Origin: Rhodospirillaceae bacterium
GTDB lineage: Bacteria; Pseudomonadota; Alphaproteobacteria; Rhodospirillales; JABHCV01
NCBI GenBank assembly: GCA_013204045.1
Contig: JABMOQ010000160.1
Span: forward strand, 1 to 35,030
Length of the DNA stretch: 35,030 nt
Reading direction: 5' to 3'
Positions within the stretch are counted from its first letter, which is position 1, and every line of letters begins with the position of its first letter. The position numbers and the translations under genes are program-made. Positions 31,173-32,489 of this stretch are shown here, one piece after another. A model generated the notes under the pieces. The model saw only the letters and a program-made list of their open reading frames with translations, ran no database searches and had not been told where the DNA came from.

Positions 31173-31250
31173 CGCGCGCCGGCACCATGTGTGCGGGATG
31201 CGCGATACGGCACGGGGAGCGTGATAGAATCTAAGTGAGGAGCCTAGGCC

Positions 31251-32489
31251 CTGACCCTTTCGCAAGGACTGGCGACAAGCAATCGCCCCGAACACGATCC
31301 CCGGCGGGAACCCGGGGCGGCCCGGGTTTCCATTGTCCGCCTGACGCTCAACAATTTCCGCTGCTATGAAGGCCAGCGCATCGAAACCGATGGTCGCCCG
31401 GTGGTGCTGACCGGCGCAAATGGTGCCGGCAAAACCAATATACTTGAGGCGCTGTCGTTTCTGGTGCCGGGGCGTGGCCTGCGCGGCGCGCGGCTCGGCG
31501 AGGTGTCACGGCGCCAGCCCGGGGCGCCGGCAGCCGCTGCCGGCAACTGGGCGGTGGCATCCCGAATAGAAACGCCGAACGGCCCGGTTGATGTCGGCAC
31601 CGGACGCGATGGCGGAGACGGGGGTCAGCCTCAGAAACGGGAACGCCGGGCCGTCCATATCGACGGCCAAACGGCGCGCTCGCAATCGGCGCTGGCCGAT
31701 GTCTTAAGCGCGCAGTGGCTGACACCGCAGATGGACCGATTGTTCCAGGAAGGCCCATCGGCCCGCCGCCGCTTTCTTGACCGGCTGGTATTTGGCTATG
31801 ATCCGGCCCATGCCGGACGGGTCCAGGCCTACGAACATGCCTTGCGCGAACGGGCCCGCCTGTTGCGCCACGGCCAGCCCCATTCGGGCCGACCTGCCGA
31901 TCCGGAATGGCTGGCGGCGCTGGAAGATACCATGGCCTCGAAAGGGGTTGCCGTTGCCGCCGCGCGTCTCGACATGGCGGCCCGGCTTGATGAAATGGCA
32001 GCCCCCGGGGCCGCCGGATTTCCCGGCGCCGCCGTCGCCGTTATCGGCGATGTCGAGATCTGGCTGGCGGAAGGTCCGGCCCTCGACGCCGAAGACCGCC
32101 TGCGCCGCGCCCTGACGGCGGCGCGCGGGCAAGATGCGGAGCAGGGCTCGGCTGCGGTCGGCCCCCACAAAAGCGATTTGGTGGTCACCCATATGGGCCA
32201 TGGACAGGACGCCTCCCTTTGTTCGACTGGCGAGCAAAAGGCGCTGCTGATTGCGCTGATCCTGGCCAACGCACGCCTGCAGGCGGCGTCCCGCGGAACC
32301 CTGCCGGTGTTGCTGCTGGACGAGATCGCGGCACATCTGGACTCACGCCGCCGGGAAGCCTTGTTTGGGGAAATCCTCGACCTCGGCGTGCAGGCCTGGA
32401 TGACCGGAACCGATGCCGGCATTTTTGCACCGCTCGGCGGTGCCGCACAGTATTTAGGCGTCGAAGAAGCCATCGTGACCCCCGTTTGA
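31251..32489 (+). CDS. recF: DNA replication/repair protein RecF, probably started at a CTG codon
   Basis: RecF is an SMC-like ATPase that helps load RecA at gaps. Family features are [20 protein letters not shown], Walker A GANGAGKT (55-62), [21 protein letters not shown] and signature/Walker B elements [19 protein letters not shown] and [11 protein letters not shown]. No ATG, GTG or TTG occurs in frame between the stop at 31245-31247 and 31401, yet the N-terminal strands need sequence from about 31332. AGGAG (31238-31242) sits 8 nt before the CTG at 31251, so CTG is the favoured start, giving 412 residues. An ATT at 31332, a frameshift or a sequencing error are alternatives. It precedes gyrB by 22 bp. 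Confidence 0.88.

What the first reader, a model, noticed from the sequence alone, without database searches (positions are those of the whole stretch)
31238..31400. recF has no ATG, GTG or TTG start; CTG at 31251 is favoured
From the in-frame stop at 31245-31247 to 31401 there is no usual start, yet the conserved first strands of RecF lie in this interval. AGGAG is placed 8 nt before CTG, ideal spacing. A rare start codon would lower RecF expression; an indel in the sequence is the main alternative.
Basis: partly seen in the sequence, partly recalled or inferred. Interest (0 to 1): 0.5.

Follow-up and report, generated by a model that had tools for sequence, protein, structure and literature searches.

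The report
Conserved CTG start codon of recF
The DNA-repair gene recF in this bacterium has no ordinary start codon, and relatives show that it most likely starts at the very rare codon CTG, which several families of its order share, so it is very unlikely to be a sequencing error.

Summary
Between the in-frame stop at 31245-31247 and GTG 31401 the recF frame has no ATG, GTG or TTG. RecF's first conserved strand starts at about 31332-31338, and AGGAG (31238-31242) lies 8 nt before CTG 31251.

Relatives turn a local oddity into a lineage trait. In 36 of 161 RecF tree rows, from nine family codes of the window's order, an SD-like site after dnaN precedes an in-frame CTG at the head of a short N-terminus. 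Other lineages carry ATG, GTG or TTG at or beside that place. Eight of 40 aligned start sites have no usual start up to the core, two of them in single-contig genomes. Chosen without looking at the codon, CTG stands at start spacing from the strongest SD-like site in 32 of 118 usable junctions of the order, against 6.0 in control windows; taking one junction per genus, 19 of 59 against 2.5. Named loci outside that set show 2 of 44 against 1.0.

An indel is very unlikely. RecF most likely starts at CTG 31251. Low, IF3-sensitive translation is inferred, not shown. CTG starts are known elsewhere (FIB rep).

The parts
30057..31172 (+). dnaN, upstream neighbour; its stop lies 78 nt before the CTG
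   Evidence: TIGR00663, 310.6 bits; ORF
31238..31242 (+). AGGAG, Shine-Dalgarno-like site of recF, 8 nt before CTG
   Evidence: sequence; duplex energy -7.5 kcal/mol with the 16S tail used (tail recalled, not read from this genome)
31245..31247 (+). in-frame TAG that closes the recF frame upstream
   Evidence: sequence
31251..31253 (+). CTG, proposed start codon of recF
   Evidence: matching SD-CTG sites in relatives
31251..32489 (+). recF coding sequence from CTG to its stop (412 codons)
   Evidence: TIGR00611, 238.1 bits; RecF matched in 59 of 60 relatives
31269..31271 (+). CTG at codon 7 of the proposed gene, the place of the rival start (TTG in many relatives)
   Evidence: sequence; codon table
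31332..31334 (+). ATT at the first conserved RecF residue; no usual start before it
   Evidence: alignment A1, 5z67 alignment
31401..31403 (+). GTG, first usual start of the frame; lies inside the conserved core just before the Walker A motif
   Evidence: Walker A label recalled

Best explanation
recF of this genome, a member of an order of Alphaproteobacteria that includes Thalassospira and unnamed Rhodospirillales, is translated from the near-cognate codon CUG at 31251. The 30S subunit is placed by the SD site AGGAG 8 nt upstream, initiator fMet-tRNA reads CUG with a first-position mismatch, and RecF starts with Met and carries a roughly 27-residue extension before the conserved ATPase core. 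The start site has been kept across at least nine families, with replacement by ATG, GTG or TTG in or near the same place in some lineages. Shown: the anatomy, its repetition in relatives and its excess over chance. Inferred: use of CUG in the cell, weak initiation compensated by a good SD site, and repression by IF3, which would keep RecF scarce next to DnaN.
For: (1) No ATG/GTG/TTG before the core in the window. The same holds in 8 of 40 aligned start sites: L001, L007, L060, L067, L232, L236, L255, L256 (which looked from the in-frame stop, or at most 10 codons before the site, through the first core residue; seven have CTG, L236 has CTT). L255 and L256 come from G081 and G082, single-contig genomes. 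(2) CTG follows an SD-like site at start spacing in many relatives: 36 of 161 tree rows, family codes f1, f8, f10, f12, f15, f17, f20, f23, f27 (L067 has no code of its own but is identical to a G080 locus, f27). (3) The homologous codon is ATG in L003 and L004 (same family, f1) and GTG in f21 (seven tree rows; the motif is clearest in L178). TTG stands one codon later in g45, and TTG stands at a matching place, aligned by position only, in genus codes g29 and g99 (seven junctions, four tree rows). (4) Codon-blind test: 32 of 118 against 6.0; one per genus 19 of 59 against 2.5. (5) In the 36 CTG rows the 25 conserved leucine columns of the core hold CTG in 22-76% of cells, mean 47%, so an ordinary leucine would not look like this. 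(6) Differences between codon 7 and the core, in the 9 of 14 close pairs of equal length, favour third positions (32/26/54); those upstream of CTG in all 14 pairs do not (9/11/12).
Against: No protein or ribosome data. The 36 rows were labelled CTG by inspection after an SD-plus-motif search, so 37 CTG of 40 aligned sites (with 2 ATG and 1 CTT) is not an unbiased rate; one search is the codon-blind one. There other codons also exceed control: CTT 6 against 1.75, ATC 13 against 2.75 (three of the ATC rows have it as codon 2 after CTG), and 6 of the 32 CTG rows are not counted by me as CTG starts (L010, L056, L057, L175, L205, L230). In 32 of 40 rows some ATG/GTG/TTG occurs at, before or after the site up to the core (two are the ATG rows themselves), so CTG is forced only in a few. 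Codon 7 is TTG in 16 of 40, more than expected for a leucine, which hints at a second start. L236 has CTT at the site with no usual start. Between CTG and codon 7 the third-position excess is weak (5/3/8). Rows are related and pairs overlap, so counts are not independent. A CUG with an upstream SD in Caulobacter dnaA gave a toeprint but was not used in vivo (PMC8443254, passages).
Confidence: 0.9

Rival explanations
1. Sequencing or assembly error: an indel or base error removed a usual start or broke a frame joined to GTG 31235.
For: The genome is a draft of 177 contigs. GTG 31235 opens a different frame upstream.
Against: Independent relatives have the same SD-CTG anatomy without any usual start, including two single-contig genomes. 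Their dnaN stop-core distances differ, so no common error can explain them.
Confidence: 0.03
2. The start is codon 7 (CTG 31269 here, TTG in many relatives, ATG in L002), alone or together with CTG 31251.
For: Codon 7 is TTG in 16 of 40 rows, CTG in 7 and ATG in 1 as printed (CTG 9 after mending the two misread ATG rows). TTG is about 21% of leucine codons in these genes.
Against: SD energy at the codon-7 TTG or ATG of the CTG rows is 0 to -3.6 except -5.5 in L018 and -6.7 in L221, against -3.8 to -12.1 at codon 1. Codon 7 is TCG in L007, GTC in L016 and L022, CTT in L013 and TTT or TAT in genus code g52.
Confidence: 0.05
3. The start is ATT 31332, in the manner of infC, directly at the conserved core.
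For: ATT is a known rare start (infC in E. coli, PMC5472188 passages). A solved RecF of another bacterium aligns from its residue 7.
Against: The homologous codon is GTC in the near relatives L002, L005 and L006. The coding-like substitution pattern runs upstream of it.
Confidence: 0.01
4. recF here is a decayed gene, or starts at GTG 31401 as a shortened protein.
For: GTG 31401 is the first usual start.
Against: The frame upstream of 31401 is intact and matches RecF from residue 30 of the frame. The core is 65-69% identical to the four family relatives.
Confidence: 0.01

Closest known systems
FIB plasmid rep gene (CTG start, E. coli)
   Same: CTG start with a good ribosome-binding site; annotation mostly shows a downstream GTG instead; the authors argue it sets expression just high enough (PMC11983097, passages)
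   Different: Plasmid replication gene, shown by mutation and N-terminal analysis; here a chromosomal repair gene, comparison only, kept across families
Streptomyces sigR (GTC start, repressed by IF3)
   Same: Rare start plus strong SD, kept by descent (GTC in 32 of 34 species, GTT in two; PMC5472188, passages); compare CTT in L236
   Different: Different codon, gene and phylum; IF3 repression shown there, not here
infC (ATT/ATC start, IF3 autoregulation)
   Same: Chromosomal gene with a non-canonical start in distant bacteria (PMC5472188, passages)
   Different: The feedback logic is specific to IF3; no feedback of RecF on initiation is known to me (recalled)
Caulobacter dnaA upstream CUG
   Same: CUG with an SD upstream of dnaA in an alphaproteobacterium, visible by toeprint (PMC8443254, passages)
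   Different: Not used in vivo, and a usual AUG exists downstream; the window's recF has none before the core

Membership tests
RecF (TIGR00611) | score over the curated cut-off | tested here: met
   238.1 bits against 172
RecF (TIGR00611) | place between dnaN and gyrB | tested here: met
   dnaN 30057-31172, gyrB 32512-35019
Genes with a non-canonical start codon | no ATG/GTG/TTG that could give the full protein | tested here: met
Genes with a non-canonical start codon | start codon kept by descent and placed after an SD site | tested here: met
Genes with a non-canonical start codon | N-terminal peptide or ribosome start peak at the codon | not testable with these tools
   no proteomic or profiling data
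IF3-regulated starts (infC, sigR) | expression falls when IF3 rises | not testable with these tools
   needs an experiment; infC of this genome also appears to lack a usual start near its SD site (my reading of the sequence)

The most novel reading that the evidence does not exclude
The CUG start of recF is an old, selected control element of a large part of an alphaproteobacterial order. Initiation at CUG, backed by a strong SD site and discriminated against by IF3, sets RecF at a low level against DnaN from the same gene cluster and ties RecF dosage to IF3 level. Lineages that lost it moved to TTG, GTG or ATG at or beside the same site.
Probability: 0.35. Interest if true: 0.65.

Novelty: new member of a known kind. 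Interest (0 to 1): 0.52.

Why it matters
CTG starts are about 0.024% of annotated bacterial starts in one survey quoted in PMC11983097 (passages), and reconstructed ancestral AUG starts switched to CUG only 2 times in 61,358 in PMC5622118 (passages). A CTG start kept across families in a core repair gene would show that such codons can be stable rather than transient. It would mean that recF starts in these genomes are probably mis-annotated (not checked here), and it gives a natural system to test IF3 control outside infC and sigR.

Tried and rejected
Indel or assembly error was rejected by relatives. ATT 31332 was rejected because the homologous codon is GTC in near relatives. Codon 7 as sole start was rejected on SD spacing and on non-start codons in L007, L013, L016 and L022. 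Initiator tRNA variation as a cause: six of 12 genomes searched (G012, G027, G081, G020, G033, G140) gave the same anticodon stem-loop with an A-U pair where E. coli has G-C; ARAGORN called tRNA-Met in 9 of 10 such loci and I read one in full. These include genomes with and without CTG starts, so it does not explain the codon; the initiator tRNA of G000 itself was not found. Extension beyond the order: no clear excess in 73 named loci (2 of 44 usable against 1.0); the class was not searched further. Errors of mine: the pattern was mis-spaced (it cannot match even the window), so its 0 of 317 says nothing. In one search the two ATG rows L003 and L004 were read one codon too far down and show as ATC; the right reading is ATG, corrected. 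One search took the named loci L062-L140 as other lineages, but six of them (L067, L069, L072, L078, L081, L085) are identical to loci of the order; moves them. L052, L057 and L222 have CTG followed at once by TTG and were counted as TTG, not CTG. L013, L026 and L230 were left ambiguous. L025 and L072 (perhaps ATC) and L010 were not counted as CTG. L250 and L227 come from one draft genome (G254), so the 36 rows are 35 genomes. Of 252 loci held, two did not cover the RecF start, two gave no RecF N-terminus and the rest collapsed to 222 distinct junctions. No structure was predicted.

Full report
What is there. The window holds dnaA, dnaN, recF and gyrB in that order. The recF frame is closed upstream by TAG 31245-31247 and its first ATG/GTG/TTG is GTG 31401. 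The RecF model TIGR00611 matches from residue 30 of the frame, and the solved RecF 5z67 aligns from residue 31. AGGAG 31238-31242 stands 8 nt before CTG 31251.

Relatives. RecF was found in 59 of 60 relatives and in 218 of 225 genomes of the order that are at least 90% complete. I read the dnaN-recF junction in 195 and later 222 distinct loci, named loci included. In many of the nearest genomes the pattern repeats: dnaN stop, a GGAGG-like site, 4-8 nt, CTG, then a short peptide like x-T/I-x-S-Q-G-L-A, then the RecF core. In family f1 the window genome, G002, G004 and G005 have CTG, while G001 and G003 have ATG at the homologous codon (L004 and L003). Family f21 has GTG there. Genus code g45 of f27 has TTG one codon on. 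Genus codes g29 and g99 of f27 have TTG at a matching place, aligned by position only.

Tree. A FastTree of 161 RecF cores, which leaves the start region out, puts all 36 CTG rows in one set of 86 rows (support 87, drawn open). Those 86 rows also hold 12 TTG-at-codon-2 rows, 7 GTG, 4 TTG, 2 ATG, 1 CTT, 2 perhaps-ATC, 3 ambiguous, 12 unassigned and 7 others. The CTG label needs 13 changes (at least 4 on starred branches), against 32.7 in shuffles. CTG is thus probably old in this set and has been exchanged with other starts; the deep order of events is not resolved, and an unrooted count cannot tell gain from loss.

Codon-blind tests. Because the CTG rows were picked with CTG in view, I also chose only the strongest SD-like site in each junction. 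Among 149 junctions of the order, 118 were usable and CTG is in frame at start spacing in 32, against a mean of 6.0 in four control windows. With one junction per genus the figures are 19 of 59 against 2.5. In 73 named loci not identical to these, 44 usable, they are 2 against 1.0 (earlier versions). CTT (6 against 1.75) and ATC (13 against 2.75) also exceed control in the full set, CTT not in the one-per-genus set (0 against 1.25; ATC 6 against 1.25). Within the CTG rows, 25 conserved leucine columns of the core hold CTG in 22-76% of cells, so a merely coding leucine would vary. Differences between codon 7 and the core, in 9 close pairs of equal length, favour third positions (32/26/54), and those upstream of the CTG in 14 pairs do not (9/11/12); between CTG and codon 7 the excess is weak (5/3/8).

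No usual start at all. In 8 of 40 aligned start sites no ATG, GTG or TTG occurs from the in-frame stop (or at most 10 codons before the site) through the first core residue. Seven have CTG; one, L236, has CTT after a strong SD site. Two of the eight are single-contig genomes (G081 and G082). This removes the indel explanation for practical purposes.

How it works. CUG is read by the initiator anticodon with a first-position mismatch, and CUG complexes are less stable than AUG, GUG or UUG ones (PMC11497404, abstract and passages). A strong SD site may compensate in part: in the FIB replicon, CTG with a good ribosome-binding site gives just enough Rep (PMC11983097, passages). IF3 represses such starts in sigR and infC (PMC5472188, passages). 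The infC frame of this genome has its first ATG as the 13th codon after the in-frame stop, while ATA lies 8 nt after AGGAG (my reading), so IF3 autoregulation is plausible here. That recF is held low by this is inference.

Literature. Searches for recF with 'CTG start codon', for 'CTG start codon' with alphaproteobacteria, and for start codon, CTG, recF, dnaN and annotation together found no paper. 'CTG start codon' with bacteri- listed 18 papers, of which I opened one. A looser search with Rhodospirill- gave none whose listing concerns this (listing only). These cover only the open-licence library.

Verdict. An unusual but very probably real start codon, a new member of the small class of conserved non-canonical starts.

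Noticed in passing
L236 (G257), start region: At the CTG site this relative reads CTT, with a strong SD site (-10.4) and no ATG/GTG/TTG before the core: a CTT or ATA start, or a base error in a draft genome.
   Followed up: partly
L025 and L072, start region: The start site has GCG then ATC after AAGGAG or GAGGAG, with a GTG overlapping the SD site; in L072 codon 7 is TTA, so an ATC start is possible.
   Followed up: no
31269-31271 and homologous codon 7 in relatives: Codon 7 of the N-terminal motif is TTG in 16 of 40 rows, more than its share of leucine codons (21% in these genes); perhaps a second start or selection on the early mRNA.
   Followed up: partly
L313 (infC of the window's genome): infC seems to lack a usual start near its SD site; ATA 8 nt after AGGAG is the likely start.
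   Followed up: partly
L275 1473-1549 and the same stem-loop in six genomes: Initiator-like tRNA-Met has an A-U pair in the anticodon stem where E. coli has G-C; present with and without CTG starts (pair position and initiator features recalled).
   Followed up: partly
31173-31330: The 158 nt from the dnaN stop into recF fold better than shuffles (z -3.05): a hairpin right after dnaN and a GC-rich one in the recF N-terminus.
   Followed up: no
27463-28342: About 0.9 kb before the dnaA region without an ORF of 100 aa or more, a candidate for the replication origin.
   Followed up: no
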